64,000 bases of DNA from Physcia stellaris. Lineage: Eukaryota; Ascomycota; Lecanoromycetes; Caliciales; Physciaceae. The notes below the pieces were generated by a model. The model was given only the letters and a program-made list of their open reading frames with translations, was not told the DNA's origin and did no database searches. The translations under genes were made by a program, and so were the position numbers. The stretch lies in assembly GCA_018902385.1 (NCBI GenBank), contig JABSSW010000012.1:434001-498000 (forward strand), in the 5' to 3' direction. This document shows, piece by piece, positions 9,607-51,662 of the stretch; positions within the stretch are counted from its first letter, which is position 1; every line of letters starts with the position of its first letter.

Positions 9607-10620
9607 AAGGTCTGATGAAGTGGTGAGGCTTACGGTGCAAGGCTGTCTGTTTGGAAGTTTTCAGTGGGACGCGCACCCCTGCCAGGTGACGTAGCCGGTC
9701 GCTAAGTCACGGGGTTTTCCACTAGCACAGATAGGGCTTAAAACTTTACCTTAAAGCTGAAGTTCAGAATGAGGTGAGTCTCTGTAGTTGTTGACGTCGG
9801 TAGGAGGGAAGTGAAAGAGGAGGTCAAGAAGGGTTGTAGGTAGGCTCTTGTGTTCAACGCCTGCCTGCATACATCTTGTACGATAGCACGCCTGCAAAGT
9901 CAAAAAATGACCGGTCGCATTGACAAGGCTGCCTTGATGAGTGAACCCCGCCGAGCAATAGGCTGAGCACTGGCTCTTATGTAAGGTACGTTAACACTAA
10001 AGTTAAGTAAATGAGAGGGAAATGTTTCACATTTGTGTCATTTTGATGCATCACTTTCCTTGTTGGGCTTCGGGATGGTGAGGCTTGAAGACATGATGTG
10101 CTATCTCACCGGCTTGACCGGATCCAAGAGGCTCAACTGGCGCCGATGTTGGAAACGGTGAGAATAGTAAGGAATGGAATGACATCAAAAAAGTGCGAAA
10201 AGGGTAGTCGCTTATGCTTTGCAAGACCCTACCCTGAAGATTCGAGCTCGTGCTAGGGCGAACTTGCTATCGATGCCTGAAACAGAATACAGGCTGGTCA
10301 CCGCAAGCACCGGTAAAGTCTCTACAGAAAGCAATAGTAAGCCGTGGATATCATCGCCGAAACCTACCTCATCCTTCCCATAGACTCCATGCAAAATGCA
10401 AACACAGACCATCGCGCCACGTCGCCAAACGCCTTGTTTGATTAGATGGTACAAGGTTGATCTCTTCAAGTGGTAATTTAATGTGTCTAGCGTCATAGTT
10501 TTACCGAATGATTTGCCTAGGTCGCTCAAACACCATAGGACATAGTGATCCCTAGGTGCTGCACCAGATGCTCAATTGAGATGAGTGATTGGAGATTCGG
10601 ATTTTCCGTGTAGACTACGT
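9607..10620. other. intergenic region between Uls1 and the histidine kinase
   Basis: About 1 kb without a supported gene. It should contain the Uls1 promoter/5' UTR (right of 9606) and the 3' UTR of the kinase (left of 10621). A 105-codon open frame at 10212-10529 (-) has no recognisable domain and was not accepted. Confidence 0.55.
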
Positions 10621-13600
10621 TCAGCTGCTGTGAGAGCGTAACAGAAGCTATCAATGTCAGCATGAAGCAGTTCGTACGGTGATGGCCAACTCACACGTTC
10701 CAACGGATCCGACTGGTCCGCGCTGATCAGCGACGGACTCTCAGCATTGCCATCCATGTTGCCCGCGCTGGTGATGGATCGGCCCTTCATATGTGGTCGT
10801 TTCCTTGGAGGTCCCTTTGTCGCTGATGCCTGCGCCGGAGATCCTGTAGAGGGCACTGACGCTTTGGCTGCGTCTTGGGGGTCGTCTTTGGCTGATATCC
10901 TTGGTTCGGTTCCACGCTGGAGTAACCTACCGCCAAGCGTGGCACATTTCAAAATGGTCTGCATCATTTGATTCTGCTTCAATGGCTTGGTCAAATATTC
11001 ATCCATGTCGGCCTGTATACACTTTTCCCGGTCACCCATCATCGCGTGAGCCGTCAATGCGATAATCGGAGTGCGGACTCGGCCATTCGAGCGTTCATAT
11101 TCCCGGATCTTGGCTGTGGCCTCGAAGCCGCCCATGACTGGCATTTGCACGTCCATGAGAATCACCTCATAGGCCCTCCTCTCGACAGCTTCAAGAGCTT
11201 CCAATCCGTTGTTGGCCACAGTGACTCCATGGTTGTACTTTTCCAGAATCTTCTTCGCTAGTCGTTGGTTGACTTCATTATCCTCAGCCAGGAGAATATC
11301 GAAGGACTTGGAATGATCGGACGAGAGCACGGACTGGCGTCCTTCAAGTGCTGGAATCATGCCGTTGCCAAGGTCGTACAGCGAGCAAGGAGTAGTCATA
11401 TAAGAAGCTATCCCATGATCCAGAGCAGATTTCATACTGACAGACACGACCGGCGCGAGCAGAACAATAGGCACGAATCTCACCTCGTCCACGCTCCGTA
11501 CTTTCTTCGCGGTATCCATGTCGTCAACAAGGACTACATCATATGCAAGCCCATCAATGCCTTTCACGGCCGGCCTAGGGACTTGTAGTCGGCTATTCTG
11601 GTACTCGGTGCTGGCAATGATGGGCTCAAGTTCAAGCTCGCTGATCATTTTGGATATTTCGTTGGCGTAGCCAGTTCGTCCCTTGTCGATAAACAGCACA
11701 CGCTGACCCTTGTATTGTGCCATAGACTGCTGTAGCCTTAACAACGCCTCATCAGAAGCTTGCTTGAAGATGCAGGTGAAGCTAAAGGTGCTGCCGTGGC
11801 CATAGATGGATTCGACCTTCAGGTCTCCGCCCATGATGGTGACCAGTTTCCGTGAAATGGAAAGACCTAATCCTGTGCCTCCAAATTTCCGCGTAGTGGA
11901 GCCGTCAGCTTGTCGGAAGGTATCGAAGATTTTCTCCAGATTGCCTGGAAGGATTCCTATCCCTGTATCCGAAACCGAGAAATAGAAAGCATACTTGTCA
12001 GAGCTCGTGACCGCGCTAGGAGCCGCACTGATCGTTAGCTTGACCTCGCCTTCTTCGGTAAACTTTATTGCGTTTCCGACAAGGTTGAGAATGATTTGAC
12101 GTAGGCGGAAGGGGTCGCCATTGATAAAGTCGGGTATAGAGCTATCGACTTGATAGGCGAGATTGATAGACTTGTCACTTGCCCGAGTTGCCAATGTTTT
12201 GAGTGCGTTGAACACGGTTCCTCGCATCGAGAAATCCGTATTCTCCAAGTCCATACGATTCGCTTCGATCTTTGAGATATCTAGTATGTCATCAATGATC
12301 GTCAATAAACTGTTAGCTAGGTTGTGTACGATGTTCAGCATCTCGCGCTGGTAAGGCGTCATCTCGGTATCGAGCGTCAACTGGGACATTCCAATTATCC
12401 CGTTCATGGGGGTTCTTATTTCGTGGCTCATGTTCGCGAGAAATTCTGATTTTGTTTCATTCGCCTGCTCCGCCGCCTCCCTTGCAACATTGTTCTTCTG
12501 GATAGTATCCTTCAAGTTCAAGATCATGCGGTTGATTTTCTTCTTGAGATCATCCATCTCACCGGAAGCACTGACGATGATCAAGCGGGAGAAGTCTCCG
12601 TCAATAGCTGCGTCTGTGATGTCTGAAAACGCCCGCACCTGAGAGGTTAAGTTCTCCGCCATAGTGTTGACATCTGTAGTGATTTCTTTCCATCGTCCAC
12701 TGACGTTGTCGACGTTGGCTTGACCACCCATCTTTCCATCAACCCCGACGTCGCGTGCTACTCTCTTAAGCTCTCGAGCAAAAGTGTCCAATTGATCTAC
12801 CATGTCGTTGACTGTGACCTTTAACTTCAATACCTCGCCTTGCGCCTGGACTTCGATTTTCTGACTCAGATCTCCACGTGCAATGGCTTGAGTTACATCA
12901 GAGATGCCTCGAACTTGTTCGGTTAGGTTGAAAGCCATAATATTGACGTTATTCGTCAATTCTGCCCATTTGCCTTCCACATTCTCCACCTTGGCCTGGC
13001 CACCGAGTGTGCCGTCTGTACCGACTTCTCTAGCAACTTTGCTGACTTCGAATGCGAAATTGTTAAGTCTGTCAACCATGGAGTTTATCGTTACCTTGAG
13101 GCTCAGAATTTCACCCTTAACCTCAGCAGTCACCTTTCGGCTTAGATCGCCCCGTGCCACTGCTGTGGTGACCGAGGCGATCTCTCTCACTTGGGTTGTG
13201 AGATTCATAGCCATGACATTAACATTATCAGTTAGATCCTTCCATGTCCCTTCGACATCATGCACAGTCGCCTGGCCGCCGAGCTCCCCATCCGTACCAA
13301 CAGCTCGAGCGATCTTCGTCACTTCCTGAGCGAATTGACGAAGCTGATCGACCATGGAGTTGATGGTTGATTTAAGCTCCAGGATCTCTCCTTTGCAGCT
13401 CGCTTGAACTTTTCTCGTCAAGTCACCTTTGGCTACAGCAGTAGTGACGTCTGCAATGTCGCGCACTTGATTGGTGAGATTATCGGCCATAGCATTTACG
13501 TTGACGGTTAAGTCGCTCCACATTCCTTTCACCCCTGCGATTTGAGCCTGTCCGCCTAGAACACCCTCAGTGCCTACATCGCGGGATACTCTGGTAACTT

Positions 13601-14731
13601 CCATAGCAAACGTTCGTAGCTGATCCACCATTGTATTTATTGTCTGTTGTAGCTGCAGGATTTCCCCCCTTGCTGTCCGTTTAATTTTTAATCCCAAGTC
13701 TCCCTCGGCCACAGCAGTGGTTACCTCGGCGATTTCGCGCACCTGGAGAGTTAAATTGTTGGCCATAACGTTTACTAAAGCTTCAGTCAGTTTTGTAATA
13801 CAAGCGACATAGCATGCAGCAACTCACCGTTTTCTGTAAGCTCCTTCCATATGCCGTTGACGCCGGTTATACGCGCCTGACCACCCAAAATACCTTCTGT
13901 ACCGACTTCACGTGCCACCCGAGAAACTTCGCTTCCAAAGACTTGCAATTGGTCCATCATTGTGTTAATCGTCTTCTTGAACGTTACGATCTCTGGGTCC
14001 ATCTCGACATCGTGTATCTGCACCTTATGGCTTAAATCTCCGTTCGCGACATTTGTAATGATGGTTCCAATTTCCCTGAAAGCTTTCTGAAAAGCTTCGT
14101 TGGCTTGCTGATGTTTCCGCAACTCACGCTGCACTGTGACGATTTCCTTCTGCTCAATCTGAACAATGCTGTCTTGCAGCTGTTGCTGGAGTTCGTGGAC
14201 CTTGCTTTCGAGGGCGGTACTGTGATTCTTCAGGCTTTGAATATGGGACAGATGGTTATCGATTTGTTCGGCAGCCTCTTGTATCTGGTTTGATGTCTCT
14301 TCATTGAGACCTCGACCTCCTGCTCGTATTGGAAGCAGGCCAGATAGGCGACCATTGCGTGTTGATCCTGATGCTGAACCCTGCCGGACTGGACCACCGG
14401 AGCCGGTTCGAGTTTGTCCATTTGCAAGCCGAGGATCAAATGGCGAGGAAGGGCCACTCCACTCGCTGGGGGTGTCGGGCAAAGCCTGGTGGCTAGCAGT
14501 ACTGGCCCTGGCTTCGAGATATTGTATGCGACTCGCCAAAGAGGAAAGCTCTGTCTCAAAGGCACTCTTCGATGGATTGTCAGAACCGGGTAGCGTGATC
14601 TTCCCCGGGTGGAGAATATTTTCACTGCGGGGTTGAAGATTGAAATTTGGGGCATCGTACGGAGGTTTTGAAGTTTTGGCCAAGTCGCGAATGATGGCCG
14701 TTGCTGCCGCGAAGGTCTCTTCCTGAGACAT
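10621..14731 (-). CDS. NIK1: group III HAMP hybrid histidine kinase (Nik1/Os-1/Bos1)
   Basis: Exons 14731-13828, 13774-10695 and 10647-10621 (introns 53 and 47 bp) give 1,336 residues, the usual size for the family. A predicted coiled coil is followed by six tandem HAMP repeats of about 92 residues, each ending like [13 protein letters not shown]...LT(E/D)N (roughly residues 220-770). Then come the H-box [14 protein letters not shown], the ATP-binding G boxes VSDTGIGI and GGTGLGLSI, and a receiver with phospho-acceptor in [12 protein letters not shown] and the conserved TKPLK lysine. The 27-base last exon encodes LLLRSHSS, the typical end of these kinases. An ATG 69 bases upstream (14800) is in frame; I prefer 14731 because [13 protein letters not shown] resembles family N-termini. 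In other fungi this cytosolic kinase acts upstream of the HOG MAP-kinase pathway and is the target of phenylpyrrole and dicarboximide fungicides. Confidence 0.95.
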
Positions 14732-42057: not shown

Positions 42058-42392
42058 GTGGTTGAGATGGAGGTTGGCGTCCGGTGTACATGATTCATGA
42101 GCGGTTGGCATGAGAACATCGAGTCCCAGCGTCATGCGTACATTGTTTTGTAGAGCTCAATGGATTACACAATCAAATTTTGGGGACTCTCATATTACTT
42201 GTCTGACTTATCTAGACTAACGATGTAAAAACGCCAAAGAAACAAATAAGATCCAAATGTACCCCCAACCCAACATCTTTTAACCATCTCCAGGAAACGT
42301 AAACATCTGTAGGAGGTCAGCTCTGATCATTGCCACTTAGCATTTCTCGGAACGTACCCTTGCTCCAAGTTTGATCAAATGGAGGACTGAGC

Positions 42393-45300
42393 CTAAGAGG
42401 CCAATCTGGATTTCTTTGAGATTCTTCTGCTGCTACAACCACTCTGGCAACCAGAACCGCAATGAGCCGACGTCGAGCCACAATAACCTGCTGATGAACA
42501 GCAGCCACCATATGCTCCACTGGGGTCACATGTGGCTCCCGAGAAAGCCGAACCACATCGGCCATCAGATCGTGGGGCTGTTGATGAGGTCCCTGAGGTC
42601 CCCCCGGAGGTACAACCACTCTGGCATCCAGACCCGCAATGAGCCGACGTCGAGCCACAATAACCTGCTGATGAACAGCAACCACCATATGCTCCACTGG
42701 GGTCACATGTGGCTCCCGAGAAAGCAGAACCGCATCGGCCATCAGAGCGTGGGGCTGTTGATGAGGTCGTTGAGGTTCCTGAGGTTCCTCCGGAGGAGCA
42801 ACCACTCTGACATCCAGAGCCGCAATGAGCCGACGTCGAGCCACAATAACCAGCTGACGAGCAGCATCCACCATACGCGCCGTTGGGATCACATGTGGCT
42901 CCTGAAAAAGCAGAACCGCATCGACCGTCAGATCGTGGTGCTGTTGTTGTTCCTGAGCTCGTTGAGGTTCCTGAGGTTCCTCCGGAGGAGCAACCACTCT
43001 GGCATCCAGAGCCGCAATGAGCTGTGGTCGAGCCACAATAACCTGCCGATGAGCAGCATCCGCCATAGGCGCCGTTGGCATCGCATGTGGCTCCCGAGAA
43101 AGCTGAACCGCATCGCCCGTCAGATCGTGGTGCTGTTGTTGTTCCTGAGCTCGTTGAGGTTCCTCCGCTGGTACAACCACTCTGGCATCCAGAGCCACAA
43201 TGATCCGTCGTCGAGCCACAATAACCAGCTGACGAGCAGCATCCGCCATACGGGCCATTGGGGTCACATGTGGCTCCCGAGAAAGCCGAACCGCATCGAC
43301 CGTCAGATCGTGGGGATGTTGTTGATCCTGAGCTCGTTGAGGTCCCTCCGCTGCTACCTGCGCTGGTACAGCCACTCTGGCATCCAGAGCCACAATGATC
43401 CGTCGTCGAACCACAATAACCAGCTGATGAGCAGCATCCGCCATATGGGCCATTGGGGTCACATGTGGCTCCCGAGAAAGCCGAACCGCATCGACCGTCA
43501 GATCGTGGGGATGTTGTTGATCCTGAGCTCGTTGAGGTCCCTCCGCTGCTACCTCCGCTGGTACAACCACTCTGGCATCCAGAGCCACAATGATCCGTCG
43601 TCGAACCACAATAACCAGCTGATGAGCAACATCCGCCATATGGACCGTTGGCGTCACATGTGGCTCCCGAGAAAGCTGACCCACATCGGCCATCAGACCG
43701 TGGTGCTGTTGTTCCTGGATTCGTCGAGGTTCCTCCGCTGCTACAACCACTCTGGCATCCAGAACCACAATGATCCGTTGTCGAACCACAATAACCAGCT
43801 GATGAGCAACATCCTCCATACGGGCCGTTGACGTCACATGTAGCCCCGAGAAAGCTTGTCCGCATCGGCCGTCAGATCGTGGGGATGTTGTTCCTGGGTT
43901 CGTTGAGGTTCCTCCGCTGCTACAACCACTCTGGCACCCAGAACCACAATGATCGGAGGTTGTGCCACAATAACCTGCTGACGAGCAACATCCCCCATAT
44001 GGGCCGTTGGCGTCACATGTGGCTCCCGAGAAAGCTGAACCGCATCGGCCGTCAGATCGTGGGGATGTTGATCCTGGATTCGTTGATGTTCCTCCGCTGG
44101 TTGAGGTTCCCCCGCTGGTACAACCACTCTGACATCCAGAACCACAATGATCGGAGGTTGTGCCACAATAACCTGCTGACGAGCAACATCCCCCATATGG
44201 GCCGTTGGCGTCACATGTGGCTCCCGAGAAAGCTGAACCACATCGGCCGTCAGATCGTGGGGATGTTGATCCTGGATTCGTTGAGGTTCCTCCGCTGGTT
44301 GAGGTTCCTCCGCTGGTACAACCACTCTGACATCCAGAACCACAATGATCGGACGTTGTGCCACAATAACCTGCCGACGAGCAACATCCGCCATATGGGC
44401 CGTTCGCATCACATGTGGCCCCCGAGAAAGCCGAACCACATCGGCCGTCAGATCGTGGGGATGTTGTTCCTGGATTCGTTGAGGTTCCTCCGCCGCTTGA
44501 GGTGCCTCCGCTGCTTGAGGTTCCTCCGCTGGTACAGCCACTCTGGCATCCAGAGCCGCAATGATCGGACGTTGTGCCACAATAACCTGCCGACGAGCAA
44601 CATCCGCCATATGCGCCGTTGGGATCACATGTGGCTCCCGAGAAAGCTGAACCACATCGGCCGTCAGATCGTGGAGATGTTGAACTAGAGCTAGTACAGC
44701 CACTCTGACATCCAGCGCCGCAATGATCGGGCGTTGTGCCACAATAACCTGCCGACGAGCAACATCCGCCATATGCGCCGTTGGGATCACATGTGGCTCC
44801 CGAGAAAGCTTGTCCACATCGACCGTCGGTTCGTGGAGCTGTTGAACTAGAGCTAGTACAGCCACTCTGACATCCAGCGCCGCAATGATCGGGCCCTGTG
44901 CCACAATAACCTGCCGACGAGCAACATCCGCCATACTCGCCATCGGGTTGACATGTTGCTCCCGAGAAATCTTGACCGCATCGGCCGTCAGACCGTGGAG
45001 CTGTTCCAGTGCCGGTACAGCCACTCTGACATCCAGTGCCGCAATGCTCGGGCGTGGTGCCACAATAACCTGCTAACGAGCAACACCCGCCATACTCGCC
45101 GTTGGGATCACATGTGGCCCCTGAGAAATCTTGACCGCATCGGCCGTCATCTCGTGGCGCTGTTGGACTCGATCCTGGATTCGTGGAGGTTCCTCCTGTG
45201 GTACTCGTACAGCCACTCTGACATCCGGAACCGCAATGATCAACCGTGGTGCCACAGTAACCAGCGGACGAGCAACATCCTCCATATGGGCCGTTGACAT

Positions 45301-48300
45301 CACATGTGGCCCCCGAGAAAGCTTGACCGCATCGTCCGTCAGATCGAGGCGCTGTTGGACTCGATCCTGGATTCGTTGAGCTTCCTCCTGTGGTACTCGT
45401 ACAGCCACTCTGACATCCGGAACCGCAATGATCAACCGTGGTACCACAGTAACCAGCGGACGAGCAACATCCTCCATATGGGCCGTTGACATCACATGTG
45501 GCCCCCGAGAAAGCTTGACCGCATCGTCCATCATCTCGTGGCGCTGTTGGATTTGTGCCAGTTCCTGAAGTAGGTGAAGTAGATCCAGGGTTCGTTGAAG
45601 TCCCTCCTCCAGTGGTACAGCCACTTTGGCATCCGGTACCACAATGATCGACCGTGGTGCCGCAATAACCAGCTGACGAGCAACAACCGCCATATGGGCC
45701 GTTGGCATCGCATGTGGCACCCCCGAAAGCTTGACCGCATCGGCCATCATCTCGTGGCGCTGTTGGATTGGTGCCAGTTCCTGAACCAGACGAACCCGAT
45801 CCTGGAGCAGTCGTAGTCCCTGAGCCAGATGAACCAGATCCTGGATTTGAGGTTCCTCCTCCACCTCCTCCAGCGGTGCAGCCACTCTGGCATCCGGTAC
45901 CACAATGATCAACGGTTGTCCCGCAGTAACCAGCACTCGAGCAGCACCCACCATATGGGCCGTTGGCATCGCATGTGGCACCCCCGAAAGCTTGTCCGCA
46001 TCGGCCATCGTCTCGTGGAGCTGTTGGATTTGTGCCAGTTCCTGAACCTGACGAACCAGATGAGCTAGACCCTGGAGCAGTCGTAGTCCCTGAGCCAGAT
46101 GAACCAGATCCTGGATTGGTCGAGGTTCCTCCTCCTCCTCCTCCACCAGTGGTGCAGCCACTTTGGCATCCGGTACCACAATGATCAACGGTTGTCCCGC
46201 AGTAACCAGCTGACGAGCAACAACCGCCATATGGGCCGTTGGCATCGCATGTGGCACCCGAGAAAGCTTGTCCACATCGGCCGTCAGATCGTGGAGCAGT
46301 CGTAGTTCCCGAACCAGATCCGGATCCTGGATCGGTTGAGGTTCCTCCTCCTCCAGTGGTGCAACCACTCTGGCATCCAGCACCGCAATGATAGACCGTT
46401 GTCCCGCAGTAACCAGCACTCGAGCAGCACCCACCATACGGGCCGTTGGCATCGCATGTGGCACCCGAGAAAGCCTGTCCACATCGACCGTCAGCTCGTG
46501 GAGCTGTGGTACTTCCCGAACCAGATGAACCAGATCCTAGAGCTGTCGTAGTTCCCGAGCCAGATGCTGGAGCTATCGAAGTTCCCGAACCAGATCCTGG
46601 AGCAGTCGTAGTTCCTGAGCCAGATGAACCAGATCCTGGATTTGAGGTTCCTCCTCCAGTGGTGCAACCACTCTGGCATCCAGCACCGCAACTATCGAAA
46701 GGTCAGCTGTCATCTTATCGCTTAGTCAGTAGCCTACTCACTGATCGACCGTGGTGCCGCAGTATCCAGCACTCGAGCAGCATCCACCATATGGGCCATT
46801 GGCATCGCATGTAGCATAGCCGAAAGCTTGCCCACATCGGCCGTCAGCTCGTGGGGCTGTGGTACTTCCCGAACTAGATGACCCAGCTCCTGGGGCTGTT
46901 GTAGTTCCCGAGCCAGATGACCCAGCTCCTGGGGCTGTGGTACTTCCCGAACCAGATGACCCAGCTCCTGGATTGGTTGAGGTTTCGCCTCCTCCAGCGG
47001 TGCAACCACTTTGACATCCGGTACCGCAACTGTCGAGGCGTTAGCTGTCGTTATATTTTCCTGACGGAAGTCTACTCACTGATCACTTGTTGTGCCGCAG
47101 TAACCAGCTGACGAACAGCAACCACCATATTCGCCATTAGCATCACATGTAGCACCGCCGAAAGCTTGCCCGCATCGACCATCGGATCGTGGGGCGGTTG
47201 GACTAGAGGTGGTACAACCACTTTGGCATCCGCCACCGCAACTGTCAATGCGTCGATGCGTTAGCTGTCATTTTGTTTTCGTGACAGAAGTCTACTCACT
47301 GTTCAGGAGTCGTGCCGCAGTAACCAGCTGACGAACAGCAACCACCATATTCGCCATTAGCATCACATGTAGCACCACCGAAAGCTTGCCCGCATCGGCC
47401 ATCGGATCGTGGGGCTGTTGAACTGGAGGCGGTACAACCACTCTGGCATCCGCCACCGCAACTATCGATGTGTTAGCTGTCATTTCGTTCTCTGCGAAAG
47501 TCTACTCACTGCTCAGGAGTCGTGCCGCAATAACCTGCTGACGAACAGCAACCACCATATTCCCCATTGGCATCACATGTAGCACCCCCGAAAGCTTGCC
47601 CGCATCGGCCATCGGACCGTGGAGCTGTTGAACTGGAGGCGGTACAACCACTCTGGCATCCGCCACCGCAACTGCCGATGCGTTAGCTGTCATTCTGTTC
47701 TCTGCAAAGGTCTACTCACTGCTCAGGAGTCGTGCCGCAATAACCAGCTGACGAACAGCAACCACCATATGGTCCGCTGGCATCACATACAGCGCCCCCG
47801 AAATCTTGACCACATCGGCCGTCAGCTCGTGGAGTTGTTGGACCAGAGATGGTACAACCACTCTGGCATCCGGTACCGCAACTGTCGAGGCGTTAGCTTT
47901 TATCTCTTGGCAGAAGTCTACTCACTGTTCAGTTGTGGTGCCGCAGTAACCAGCTGACGAACAGCAACCACCATATGGTCCGCTAGCATCACATGTAGCA
48001 CCCTCGAAATCCTGGCCACATCGGCCGTCAGATCGTGGAGTTGTCGTAGGTACCGAACCAGATGAACTAGATCCTCCCGCAGGAGTGTTCGTTGCTGAAC
48101 TTGAAGAAGTTGTAGGGTTTCCATTTCCTTGAGCCGAGGACGACGTCGTGAGGCTCTGTCCTCCTCCTCTAGATGTGCTGGACGACGCCACACTGGACGC
48201 ACCAGGCTTTTGATAACTTGCCTTATAAGCACTGTCGATACCCGTCCTGGTATAGTCGGTGCTGGTAATTTGATACTTGAGGACACAGTTGCCACCTGGG

Positions 48301-50225
48301 GTTCCTTGACTCCAAGAGACACCCACGCAAGGAGCACCGCCGGCAATAGCGCTGTTTGGCTTGTAGTTATCGCATTGTAGGATACAGTCCTGGAAGATGT
48401 CGGTGTGAGAAGTGCTAAGGTCATTGGACGGGTATTCAGCACCACATTCGATTTGGTAGGCTTCTCCGTTGACATCGATGTATGCAATGCCGTCGTAGCT
48501 GGGGCAAGGGAAACCAGACTGAGAGGCGGAGATGCTGCTCGTCGGCCCAGCAGCAGTAGGAGAGCTTTGTGGACCAGCGCCACCTCCTCCACTCGTCGAC
48601 CCAGCAGCAGTAGGAGTGCCTGATCCTGAGCCTGATCCTGAACCCCAGCCCGAACCCGAGTACGTGGTTGTACTCGAAACAACCGCTGTGCTGACTGACG
48701 TGACTGTATTTCCTTGTGAGTCTGTTGTGATGATGTTTTGAGTGGATGTCACCACGACAACGCTTGTACCTGTTGGGTAAGACTGTGGTGGTGCCGTTGA
48801 GGTGCTCGAGGTTACAAAAGTTGACCCCTTGGAATCAGTCGTCGTGTAGACAACAACAGACGTCGATGGAGATGAAATTGGAAGGGTTGAAGTAGTTGAA
48901 GTAACGTAGGTTGATCCCTGAGAATCGGTGGTCGTATAAACCACAACCGTCCTCGACCCTGCGGAAGCTGGAACATAGGAGGTTGTTGATGTCAAATAAC
49001 TTGATCCCTGAGCATCAGTAGTGGTATACTGGATGACCGTGGCCGAAGATGACGGGACTGGCAGGGTTGAGGTGGCCAAAGATGACGATAATGGCAGGGT
49101 TGAAGTAGTTGAAGTAACGTAGCTTGACCCCTTAGAATCCGTGGTCGTATACACCACAACCGTTCTCGACCCTTCGGAAGCTGGAACATACGAGGTTGTC
49201 GAAGTGACATAACTCGAGCCCTTGGAATCGGTTGTGGTGTACTGGATTACCGTGGCCGAAGATGACGGGAATGGCAGGGTCGAAGTTGTCGAGGTGACAT
49301 AACTCGAACCCTTGGAATCGGTGGTGGTGTACACGACTACGCTTGTCGATGGCACGGGAACAAATGAGGTTGTTGACGTCAAATAGCTTGACCCCCGAGA
49401 ATCGGTAGTGGAGTACTGGATCACCGTGGCCGAAGATGACGGAAATGGCAGGGTTGAAGTTGTCGAGGTGACATAACTCGAGCCCTTGGAATCGGTTGTG
49501 GTATATACGATTACGCTCGTCCAAGGCAAGGCAGAAGTTGTTGACGTCAAATATGTAGAGCCCTTAGAGTCGGTTGTTGGGTAGACGATAACAGTAGATG
49601 AACCGGACCAAGATTTGCATGTAGGGCAGTGGTAGACAATGCCATACCTTGGCGAGCCACCGCACTGAGAAGGATTACCAGTGCAGCTTGTCATGCAGCC
49701 ATATTCTCCTATATCAACACCGGGGCCAGAGGGACCAGTAGATCCACAAATGCATATATTACCTGGCCCAAATTAGCATGTGTACGATACCAAGGCTTGA
49801 ATTGGGACGATCCCACCGTTCTCGATAGCAAAGTATGGACTGCCTTTACAGTACGCAGCGCAATATTCCAGGCTCATGGATGTACTGCTACTAGTAGCTC
49901 CAGTGACCGTATATCCTCCAGCAGATGCATCGTAACAGCCTAGAAGATCGTACGACCCGTAGGTGCTATTTACACTTGTCACGATCCTGGGCGGGCCACT
50001 AGAACCAGAATTAGCGGATCCCGGTAGAAGCTTGTGGACTTGAAAGCAGTACCTTGCAGCCCCCGAGCCAGAGCCGGTACCAATCCCTCCGTTATCGAAG
50101 GAGCCAGTGTAAGCGCCTGGGAGGCAGGTGCCCGTAGGTACTCGGACTATCACAGTGTCCACAGCGTGAACCAAGATAGATGGATCCAAAAATCCAAGGG
50201 CGAGGCCCCAGCGAAGAGACCTCAT
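42393..50225 (-). CDS. giant secreted chitin-binding protein: WSC + Thr/Ser stalk + PAN-like + 27 CBM18 modules
   Basis: Eight exons: 50225-49817, 49762-47926, 47881-47720, 47671-47510, 47461-47300, 47241-47080, 47029-46742 and 46691-42393. The start MRSLRWGLALGFLDPSILVH is a likely signal peptide. A WSC domain follows (DLLGCYDASAGGYTVTG...ICICGSTGPSG). Nine to ten tandem (V/I)VYTTTDSKGSSYVTSTTS units form a glycosylatable stalk. Next is a PAN-like Cys domain (GFPCPSYDGIAYIDVNGEAY) and a Ser-rich linker. Then 27 hevein-type CBM18 modules (core CDxxGxYGGCCSSAGYCG) run to the stop at 42393. By counting, every successive module stays in frame after splicing except one step between modules 8 and 9 from the right, where C4 at 43844-43847 is one base short. 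With it the CDS is 7,482 bases, 2,493 residues. CBM18 binds chitin; the likely place is the cell wall or secretome. No catalytic domain seen. The 486-codon plus-strand frame over this region is a shadow. Confidence 0.87.
42420..46500. repeat. intronless CBM18-coding repeat array, 21 units
   Basis: Units recur every 159-276 bases (53, 54, 59-66, 69, 72, 87 or 92 codons). The tyrosine-glycine core (GGTTAT...TGTGG on the minus strand) is at plus-strand positions 42484, 42661, 42847, 43039, 43222, 43417, 43612, 43792, 43971, 44169, 44367, 44583, 44745, 44907, 45066, 45258, 45450, 45666, 45927, 46203 and 46410. The spacing differs by multiples of three except 43792 to 43971 (179). Length variation is in Gly/Ser/Thr/Pro linkers. 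Confidence 0.9.
46692..47947 (-). repeat. six intron-bearing CBM18 repeat units
   Basis: Units at 46763, 47101, 47321, 47531, 47741 and 47947 each carry an intron of 44-58 bases at the same codon, between the ACTGAACA-like end of one exon and the TTGCGGTxxC start of the next. The introns (47882-47925, 47672-47719, 47462-47509, 47242-47299, 47030-47079, 46692-46741) share a GTGAGTAG start (GTGAGTAGG in one) and mostly a GCTAACG branch region. The coding period for the four steps from 47101 to 47947 is exactly 162 bases. Confidence 0.88.
48850..49620 (-). repeat. Thr/Ser stalk repeats in the giant chitin-binding gene
   Basis: About nine copies plus a degenerate tenth of a roughly 26-40 residue unit with core YTTTDSKGSSYVTSTTS, alternating VIQY and VVVY starts. 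The DNA is repetitive at 78-120 base spacing. Rich in Thr/Ser, so probably O-glycosylated and extended. Confidence 0.85.
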
Positions 50226-51662
50226 CCTGACACAAGAAAGGCACAACCAGTGGATTACTCCAACTAATTTATGCCTCTCAGGGGTCAATATTAACTATAA
50301 AGAAGCCAGAAGAAAAGAACAGCGAGAGATTACTACCAAGGAGATGTTGGTAATGAGCGTACAACCTCAAGAAAATGATTATATCATGAACAGTAAAGGG
50401 TTTCACAGGGGCTTATAGATGAGACCATTGCAGAAATTTATAAGGGCGTGGAATGCGTAAACATCGTGCCAAGCACCAATTATTCGCATTCGTTCACATT
50501 CCTCACCAACCCAGGGCTGGGGTTCTCGAGAATGCTCCCATCGAGTGATGGGGGGAAAAAAGTCCATAGCAACGGCTATGACAGTTCTATTGCGATTGGT
50601 CTCGCTGAGTAAAAGGAAACAGATGGGGGAGGTGTGGCTAGGGCGAGGAACCTAAATATGAGCTATTTCCATCCCACTAGAATCGTCTTTCTCTAACCCA
50701 ATAGCCCTTCTTTTCATCGGATCGAACCCCTAACGGAGCCTGGAGAGATCCTTCACAAGGTGATGGTACGTTTTAATATCAATAAGTACTCAATAATAAT
50801 GGCGCCACGAAAGGAAGATGTATCGCAATTGGAGGAGGAATTTCGAATGTTTGGTTCTTCACCTTAGATTAGTACTCGATCAAGAAACCCATGTAATAAA
50901 GGAACGGGTTACTCATCTTGTTCGTCTCGATGCCGCTCCGCTGGACCTCCCCCCTTCCGTCTCTCTATCGCAGCATTTAGGAGTCCTACTGCGTGATGAA
51001 GAACTCAGACACGCGCTGAACCGTGCCAGAAACACGTGCCTAAGAACCAGAGCACGACTAACAGCTCCAGCTTGAGGGTGGGCGGGGCCGAGATTGTCGA
51101 TGGAGGTGCCCTCCCCCTCCCGCCTCCCTTTATCGCAGCATTTACGAGTCCCACTGCGTGATGAAGAACTCAGACACGCGCTGAACCGTGCCAGAAACAC
51201 GTGTCTAGGAACCAGAGCACGACTAACAGCTCCAGCATGAGGGCGGGGAGGGGGCGGGATCGTCGATGGAGGTGCGAGGGCGGAGACCGAAGGCGGGCGA
51301 CGAGGTGCGCGCCCTGCGGAATGAGGTTACGTCTTACCCCTCTCCGCCATGACGGCGGCAGGAGGATATCGCATACTGGGTAGGGGTACTCGTAGTGTGA
51401 TTAGCGCTGGCTGATGTGTATGCAATGTACTGTGGGGAGGCTGGTTTGTGCCCCGACGCGACTCGGTGGTTTGATTCCAGCCTTGGCGTCTTGGCATTTC
51501 AACATTTCGCAGCGAAAGCATGTGAAGCATGGTTCCATCAAATATTTTGTCAACCAGCTTTTATTGCCTTATACAATCCATGTCCTAAGCTTTCAGAGAG
51601 CCATGATCGGTCATCAATGTTCTATCTCTGTCAATTGAGTATTCACGTCTCGAGGTAACCCA
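50226..51662. other. intergenic region with a local tandem duplication
   Basis: Contains the promoter/5' UTR of the giant gene near its right side of 50225 and of the lipase gene before 51663. Between these lies a duplicated GC-rich block (listed separately). No gene accepted. Confidence 0.55.
50966..51274. repeat. ~144-bp direct repeat, two copies at 165-bp spacing
   Basis: Copy 1 (50966-51109) and copy 2 (51131-51274) share TATCGCAGCATTTA, ACTGCGTGATGAAGAACTC, ACACGCGCTGAACCGTGCC and CGATGGAGGTGC with scattered substitutions, about 90% identical by eye. No protein-like frame common to both. Confidence 0.8.

What the first reader, a model, noticed from the sequence alone, without database searches (positions are those of the whole stretch)
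42393..50225. A single protein of about 2,490 residues with 27 tandem CBM18 chitin-binding modules behind WSC, Thr/Ser stalk and PAN-like domains
Seen directly: 27 CBM18 cores in one spliced reading frame, after a signal peptide, a WSC domain and a nine- to ten-fold stalk. CBM18 proteins of ascomycetes usually carry far fewer modules, and expansions are known mainly from chytrids. The architecture reads as a wall anchor, a long extended stalk and a huge multivalent chitin-binding head, with no catalytic domain. It could cross-link or shield fungal chitin, bind other fungi or insect cuticle, or act as an adhesin. All of these roles are inference. This is my best candidate for an undescribed system.
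Basis: partly seen in the sequence, partly recalled or inferred. Interest (0 to 1): 0.9.

Follow-up and report, generated by a model that had tools for sequence, protein, structure and literature searches.

The report
Giant chitin-binding lectin, probable lichen fungus
A fungus that is probably a lichen partner carries a gene with 27 copies of a small chitin-binding module in a row, more than twice the number in any relative examined, but as assembled its reading frame breaks at the twentieth copy, so the full-length protein still has to be shown.

Summary
Real and unusual, with one correction. A spliced minus-strand gene (ATG at 50225) encodes a WSC-like domain, a nine-fold YTTTDSKGS stalk, a PAN-like domain and 27 CBM18 modules (Pfam stretches 6+13+8 on three pieces). 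It is not one reading frame: the frame breaks inside module 20. The frame from the ATG holds 19 intact modules plus an out-of-frame tail; modules 21-27 lie in another frame. No consensus intron bridges the break. Modules on both sides keep eight cysteines and dN/dS of 0.05-0.15, so the break is recent or an assembly error. All copies differ, so the array is no assembly duplication. The genome groups with Lecanoromycetes. Stalk/PAN relatives carry 0-9 CBM18; the most in 135 fetched proteins is 12. Six modules share an intron site with a CBM18 of a glyoxal-oxidase-like gene in the same genome. All 26 intact modules have Ala where hevein has Trp21. Best reading: a secreted, non-enzymatic wall lectin working by avidity; the function is inferred. 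New variant of a known kind.

The parts
49817..50225 (-). exon 1: start codon, plausible signal peptide, first half of WSC-like domain
   Evidence: signal peptide by eye and hydropathy only
49763..49816 (-). intron inside the WSC-like domain, 54 nt
   Evidence: the splice gives a continuous WSC-like domain that matches own-genome WSC domains
47926..49762 (-). exon 2: rest of WSC-like domain, nine-copy YTTTDSKGS stalk, PAN-like domain, first part of CBM18 module 1
48799..49602 (-). stalk: nine repeats of 69 nt at 78-123 nt spacing
   Evidence: weak PF20646 match, E 1.6e-5 and 24.9 bits against a cut-off of 25
48210..48509 (-). PAN-like domain (approximate bounds)
   Evidence: own Pfam scan negative
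46742..47881 (-). five short exons carrying the rest of modules 1-5 and the start of module 6, each module split by an intron at the same site (introns 47925-47882, 47719-47672, 47509-47462, 47299-47242, 47079-47030; the sixth is 46741-46692)
   Evidence: Pfam 6 stretches
43898..46691 (-). last exon up to module 19: end of module 6 and intronless modules 7-19
   Evidence: Pfam 13 stretches, E 9.6e-102
43838..43871 (-). stretch inside module 20 where the CBM18 reading frame changes
42393..43871 (-). second frame: rest of module 20 and modules 21-27, then a short basic tail and stop
   Evidence: Pfam 8 stretches, E 1.6e-59
42317..43837 (-). out-of-frame tail that the first frame would read to its stop

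Best explanation
A secreted, non-enzymatic, multivalent cell-wall lectin of a Lecanoromycete (probably lichen-forming) fungus. Shown: one spliced gene with a WSC-like domain, a Thr/Ser-rich stalk, a PAN-like domain and 27 CBM18 modules that grew by tandem duplication, are of a type shared with a glyoxal-oxidase-like gene of the same genome, and were held under strong purifying selection. Inferred: the protein is exported; the WSC-like domain holds it in the beta-glucan or matrix layer; the CBM18 string lies along chitin of the fungus's own wall, each module binding weakly (Trp21-equivalent is Ala) and the array tightly by avidity, so that it cross-links the wall and covers chitin against chitinases, for instance those of an algal partner. 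As assembled the gene would make only 19 modules plus a foreign tail; I take the break to be an assembly error or a recent change.
For: Module count and integrity; dN/dS 0.15 for modules 1-6, 0.10 for 7-19, 0.05 for 21-27; no catalytic Pfam domain in the pieces scanned; no TM-like stretch in residues 41-2000 of the first frame or the last 60 of the second; one module matches chitin-binding lectins of known structure (lectin-C and -D, which I recall as pokeweed lectins, Arundo donax lectin, wheat germ agglutinin), and Ser at 19, an aromatic at 23 and His at 30 are kept in 26 of 26 modules, His being the commonest residue at 30 among 514 fetched modules (362). Stalk/PAN relatives. Literature, seen as passages: WSC proteins are enriched in a fungal outer matrix (PMC9252488) and the glucan-binding lectin WSC3 agglutinates fungal cells (PMC13039781); chitinase-shielding is proposed for Bd lectin-like CBM18 by analogy with a Cladosporium fulvum protein (PMC3569864); a Trebouxia photobiont encodes a putative GH19 chitinase with LysM and its predicted secretome has an endochitinase-like enzyme (PMC12712428). 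Genome placement.
Against: Reading frame broken in module 20. No expression, localisation or binding data. Loss of the aromatic at position 21 could mean weak or altered ligand binding. Farrer et al. judged a chitinase-shielding role of chytrid CBM18 unlikely because chitinase did not change their expression (PMC5364385, passages). WSC and PAN assignments rest on relatives, since Pfam missed both here and also gave no PAN hit in P0002, P0037 and P0131. The out-of-frame tail of the first frame holds a hydrophobic stretch (11-residue mean 2.93), so a membrane-held form of the as-assembled product is not excluded. The lichen lifestyle is inferred from one gene tree plus named homologues.
Confidence: 0.45

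Rival explanations
1. Broken or truncated gene: the frame break is real, so the living protein has 19 intact modules and an out-of-frame tail, and modules 21-27 are relics.
For: Frame change inside module 20 with no consensus splice across it; three neighbour ORFs of more than 1000 codons with Pfam domains (DUF7165, SNF2/RING, histidine kinase; 3 of the 9 ORFs scanned) carry their domains in one open frame each, so indel errors are not rampant here.
Against: Modules 21-27 keep every cysteine and have the lowest dN/dS of the array, 0.05; the near-identical pairs 22/23 and 26/27 together differ at 10 silent against 1 replacement codon. Any real break must be recent.
Confidence: 0.25
2. Adhesin: the stalk holds the CBM18 head out to grip chitin on other fungi, lichen neighbours or arthropod cuticle rather than its own wall.
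For: Order WSC-stalk-PAN-CBM18 puts the array distal; a skin-adhesion role was proposed for chytrid CBM18 (PMC5364385, passages).
Against: No membrane-anchor-like stretch found in the parts of the CBM18 frames that were scanned, so grip on the own cell would rest on one WSC-like domain; own wall chitin would compete for the head.
Confidence: 0.18
3. Neutral repeat drift: CBM18 copy number grows and shrinks by unequal crossing-over with little functional meaning of the number 27.
For: Neighbouring modules are most alike (Spearman -0.78 of identity against separation, 0 of 2000 permutations as low); relatives range 0-9; Bd strains vary in domain count within one homologue (PMC12204190, passages).
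Against: Strong purifying selection on the modules and no decayed module apart from number 20.
Confidence: 0.2
4. Assembly expansion of a short array.
For: Tandem repeats are hard to assemble.
Against: No exact repeat of 120 nt or more; the longest are 108 and 104 nt. All 26 intact modules differ in DNA, with mean dS near 1 over the 309 of 325 pairs that gave values. An assembler cannot invent that.
Confidence: 0.03

Closest known systems
Stalk-PAN-CBM18-PAN proteins: P0002, P0005, P0037, P0063, P0066, P0077 (unnamed sources) and P0131 (Xanthomendoza sp. 2 TL-2023), whose sequences I read
   Same: PAN-like domain followed by CBM18 units in the same place; P0002, P0005, P0063, P0066 and P0077 also begin with a YTTTDS-type stalk
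   Different: 2 to 9 CBM18 units, no WSC part seen, and two further PAN-like domains at the end that the window gene lacks (PAN by resemblance, Pfam gave none in P0002, P0037, P0131)
P0021 (ENA, 666 aa), nearest relative
   Same: 87% identical over the PAN region, 65% over 676 aligned positions with stalk gaps; WSC end, stalk, PAN, then the first part of a CBM18 that stops where the intron would begin
   Different: Has an extra PAN domain before the shared one; whatever follows its first CBM18 lies beyond the fragment
Batrachochytrium dendrobatidis lectin-like CBM18 proteins (BDEG_01757, 11 modules)
   Same: Tandem CBM18 without a catalytic domain
   Different: 11 modules, called the largest known in 2012; chytrid; the lectin-like group has no secondary domains (PMC3569864, passages)
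Ascomycete tandem CBM18 proteins, some named Lectin-B (for example P0024, P0025, P0026, P0028, P0029, P0031)
   Same: 10-12 tandem CBM18, no catalytic domain listed
   Different: Short linkers, no stalk, WSC or PAN seen; another module subtype
Teloschistes chrysophthalmus PAN protein P0001
   Same: YTTT-type stalk, PAN domains and a CBM18 that scores nearest to modules 8, 19 and 27 (5 modules tried)
   Different: One CBM18 only, several PAN domains
Glyoxal-oxidase-like protein with CBM18 in the same genome (C4, L006)
   Same: First CBM18: 32-36 of 44 residues identical to the array modules, intron at the same site and phase
   Different: Enzyme-like protein with two CBM18; has Tyr where the array has Ala

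Membership tests
CBM18 (PF00187) proteins | PF00187 above the gathering score | tested here: met
   E 2.9e-50, 9.6e-102 and 1.6e-59 for three pieces; 6 + 13 + 8 stretches
CBM18 (PF00187) proteins | Eight cysteines per module | tested here: met
   26 of 26 intact modules by sequence; module 20 is split by the frame change
CBM18 (PF00187) proteins | Hevein binding residues Ser19, Trp21, Trp23, Tyr30 (PMC6908686 passages) | tested here: inconclusive
   Ser kept, aromatic (Tyr) kept at 23, His at 30, Ala at 21, in 26 of 26 modules. Ala at 21 in 25 of 514 comparator modules, Tyr in 250
CBM18 (PF00187) proteins | Chitin binding | not testable with these tools
   Needs a binding assay
WSC-domain proteins (PF01822) | PF01822 match | tested here: inconclusive
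   No direct Pfam hit, and no C12 row among the 41 own-genome matches; 29-38% identity, best E 1.8e-10, to own-genome stretches, the best of which overlap PF01822 matches
Wsc-type cell wall integrity sensors | Transmembrane segment and cytoplasmic tail | tested here: not met
   Highest 19-residue mean hydropathy 0.86 in residues 41-2000 of the first frame; second-frame end short and basic. The out-of-frame tail of the first frame does hold a hydrophobic stretch (2.93 over 11 residues)
PAN-domain proteins (PF00024/PF14295) | PAN match | tested here: inconclusive
   No direct hit; 41% identity to the P0020 domain that PF00024 hits
Stalk-PAN-CBM18-PAN family seen here | Stalk, PAN, CBM18 in that order | tested here: met
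Stalk-PAN-CBM18-PAN family seen here | C-terminal PAN pair | tested here: not met
   Neither frame holds a PAN-like stretch after the array
Bd lectin-like CBM18 | Only CBM18, no other domain | tested here: not met
   WSC-like, stalk and PAN-like parts present

The most novel reading that the evidence does not exclude
A mycobiont 'chitin cloak': in a lichen-forming lineage a PAN-stalk surface protein took up a CBM18 module of the type also found in a glyoxal-oxidase-like gene, shed the module's intron, and amplified the intronless form into a 27-fold low-affinity, high-avidity string that coats hyphal chitin at the contact with the alga, so that algal chitinases and chitin receptors do not reach it.
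Probability: 0.12. Interest if true: 0.72.

Novelty: new variant of a known kind. Interest (0 to 1): 0.45.

Why it matters
If full-length, this would be the longest CBM18 array among everything compared here (27 against 12 in fetched proteins, and 11 in the 2012 record paper). It gives a concrete candidate for the old question of which fungal lectins act in lichen contact: PMC12712428 (passages) says fungal lectins have long been hypothesised to act in lichen recognition and adhesion, and the same paper reports putative chitinases in the alga. Its uniform Ala at the hevein Trp21 position, and the array's graded sequence, make the avidity-for-affinity trade directly testable with short recombinant pieces.

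Tried and rejected
Bridging the frame change by an unrecognised intron: 42 frame-keeping GT-AG joins, 0 with consensus ends. Assembly duplication: rejected on exact-repeat length and divergence. Downstream C-terminal PAN pair: none seen in either frame. A single intron loss as the origin of the intronless modules: not borne out by the module tree, which needs two changes of that label. Identifying the species by rDNA: the eukaryotic SSU search failed on the machine; the only 5.8S locus found is a 31% GC, heavily substituted copy and of no use for naming. Identifying the clade by the glyoxal-oxidase-like gene worked. The motif count was too strict and was replaced; the pattern was wrong and found nothing, and was replaced. 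Paper searches: CBM18 with 'PAN domain' gave 0 papers; CBM18 with 'lichen' gave 22 papers, 15 listed, none about a CBM18 protein of a lichen fungus by title or abstract start. Proteins of over 12 CBM18 were not found among the 135 fetched, but searches scored only the 8000 candidates sharing most words, one search listed 120 of 314 hits, and lengths were bounded, so larger arrays may exist.
Full report
What is there. The gene lies on the minus strand. Its start codon is at 50225; eight exons are joined by seven introns of 44-58 nt, all GT-AG. The first intron splits a WSC-like domain. The next six all sit at one and the same place inside CBM18 modules 1-6. The last exon holds the end of module 6 and everything after it without introns. 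The module starts were located by motif: 26 whole ones plus the split module 20. Pfam PF00187 counts 6, 13 and 8 stretches on three pieces with E-values of 2.9e-50, 9.6e-102 and 1.6e-59. All 26 intact modules align over 46 residues without a gap and keep eight cysteines.

The correction. It is not. The CBM18 frame changes inside module 20, between about 43871 and 43838. The frame that starts at the ATG runs 2518 residues to a stop at 42317; its last part, about 510 residues, is out of the CBM18 frame. The rest of module 20 and modules 21-27 lie in a second frame, 42393-43871. Among 42 GT-AG joins of 40-250 nt that would carry the frame across, none has consensus ends. I therefore treat the pieces apart. 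Whether the break is in the organism or in the assembly cannot be decided here.

Is the array real? Yes. There is no exact repeat of 120 nt or more in it; the longest are 108 and 104 nt. Over the pairs of intact modules mean dS is 0.99 and mean dN 0.09 (309 of 325 pairs gave values). Selection has kept the proteins: dN/dS 0.15 in modules 1-6, 0.10 in 7-19, 0.05 in 21-27. The last value matters: those modules, now out of frame with the start, were coding until very recently or still are. The open state of the wrong frames across the array is not evidence of anything, since several frames are open there.

How it grew. Identity between modules falls with their separation (Spearman -0.78; 0 of 2000 permutations as low), as expected of tandem duplication. 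In the DNA tree modules 1-5 form one group (99/95), module 6 pairs with module 7 (90/93), and modules 21-27 form one group (89/95). The first CBM18 of a glyoxal-oxidase-like gene on contig C4 of the same genome has an intron at the same site and in the same phase, also with a CTAAC before its end. Its DNA is 80-84% identical to the intron-bearing modules 1-6 and 73-81% to the intronless ones. An inference: an intron-bearing module of this type is ancestral, and the other 21 modules descend from intronless forms. The tree does not give the simplest version, a single loss: the intron label needs two changes, and 0% of 200 bootstrap trees have one, because module 6 groups with the intronless module 7; the starred branches force only one. 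Two losses, or exchange between neighbours, would explain it.

Binding site. In hevein, Ser19, Trp21, Trp23 and Tyr30 are the key binding residues, with Trp23, Tyr30 and Ser19 making the first subsite and Trp21 the second (PMC6908686, passages). In 26 of 26 modules these positions read Ser, Ala, Tyr, His, and the module 20 piece reads the same. Among 514 modules in 130 fetched proteins, near-duplicates included, position 21 is Tyr in 250 and Ala in 25; position 30 is His in 362. So His at 30 is ordinary for these modules, Ala at 21 is not. I read this as weaker single-module binding made up by number. No binding was tested.

Other domains. Pfam gave no WSC or PAN hit in this protein, and PF01822 gave no match on this contig among 41 in the genome. 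The WSC-like region nevertheless matches 16 other own-genome stretches at 29-38% identity, best E 1.8e-10, the best of them at places where PF01822 scores well. The PAN-like domain is 41% identical to a domain of P0020 that PF00024 hits. The stalk has nine repeats and a Pfam match just under the cut-off to the yeast Hpf1 YTTT repeat (24.9 bits against 25). There is no TM-like stretch in residues 41-2000 of the first frame and no hydrophobic end to the second; the out-of-frame tail of the first frame has one hydrophobic stretch.

Relatives. Three protein searches gave 135 fetched proteins. P0021, from ENA, is 87% identical in the PAN region, 65% over 676 aligned positions, and stops where the first CBM18 intron would begin. 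P0020, P0022 and P0023 share the WSC end, stalk and PAN domains but have no CBM18 and end in two PAN domains; P0019 is a shorter piece of the same kind. Of the array-bearing relatives I read P0002, P0005, P0037, P0063, P0066 and P0077: stalk and PAN-like parts (P0037 only the end of a PAN-like part), then 7-9 CBM18, then two PAN-like domains; others of that set were only counted. P0131 (Xanthomendoza) has two CBM18 in the same place, and P0001 (Teloschistes) one. Pfam gave no PAN hit in P0002, P0037 or P0131, so PAN there rests on resemblance. By motif count the most CBM18 in any of the 135 is 12 (P0031, Paramyrothecium). The published chytrid case had 11 and was called the largest by far in 2012 (PMC3569864, passages). 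The searches were bounded in length and candidates, so this is a record only among what was examined. In the own genome 23 of 35 PF00187 matches lie on this contig, the other 12 on eight others.

Whose genome. G000 has 44.0 Mb in 147 contigs. In a tree of 77 rows of the glyoxal-oxidase-like catalytic part (own plus 76 of 78 BLAST hits, those with more than 400 aligned positions), the own sequence sits in a ten-row group with support 100/96. The five named members of that group are Sticta, Gallowayella, Xanthoria, Gyalolechia and Xylographa; the other four are unnamed. Four of the five were looked up and are Lecanoromycetes; Xanthoria is recalled to be one. The closer group of five has 91/87. 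The named PAN relatives, Teloschistes and Xanthomendoza, are Teloschistaceae too. Lecanoromycetes are mostly lichen-forming (recalled), so a lichen partner is likely but not shown.

How it most likely works. A secreted wall lectin without enzyme activity: WSC-like domain to glucan, stalk as spacer, CBM18 string along chitin. WSC proteins are enriched in the outer matrix of Serendipita indica (PMC9252488, passages), and WSC3 agglutinates fungal cells (PMC13039781, passages). Covering chitin against chitinase is a role proposed for Bd CBM18 by analogy with a Cladosporium fulvum protein (PMC3569864, passages). Against it, Farrer and colleagues found no change in CBM18 expression on chitinase and preferred adhesion or dampening of chitin recognition (PMC5364385, passages). 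In a lichen the chitinase could come from the alga: Trebouxia sp. 'A48' has a putative GH19 chitinase with LysM, and its predicted secretome an endochitinase-like enzyme (PMC12712428, passages). Every functional step is inference.

Verdict. The array is real, diverged, selected and larger than anything it was compared with, in a family that the searches made here did not find described (CBM18 with 'PAN domain': 0 papers). The full-length 27-module protein is not shown.

Noticed in passing
L009 (G000:C41:44399-47552): The only 5.8S/ITS-like locus found is 31% GC and looks C-to-T and G-to-A substituted, mainly at CpC and CpT with CpG kept (by eye, against a recalled 5.8S); TpA/ApT is 0.38, so it is not the classic CpA pattern of RIP. 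A hypermutated rDNA copy would be worth a look.
   Followed up: partly
G000 contigs C14, C43, C20, C1, C34, C8: Several stretches with neighbouring WSC domains; 41 PF01822 matches in the genome.
   Followed up: no
L006 (G000:C4:384349-387474): Glyoxal-oxidase-like gene with two CBM18 modules, the first with an intron at the same site and phase as array modules 1-6.
   Followed up: yes
window 50949-51252: Two copies of a 139-nt direct repeat, 89% identical, 165 nt apart start to start, upstream of the gene.
   Followed up: no
window 10572-13823 (-): Hybrid histidine kinase with several HAMP domains and a receiver domain.
   Followed up: no
L023 (G000:C8:63484-66777): Another PAN-like stretch (32% identity, E 3.6e-8) in a 582-codon open frame; a weaker third one lies on C74 with a stop inside.
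   Followed up: no
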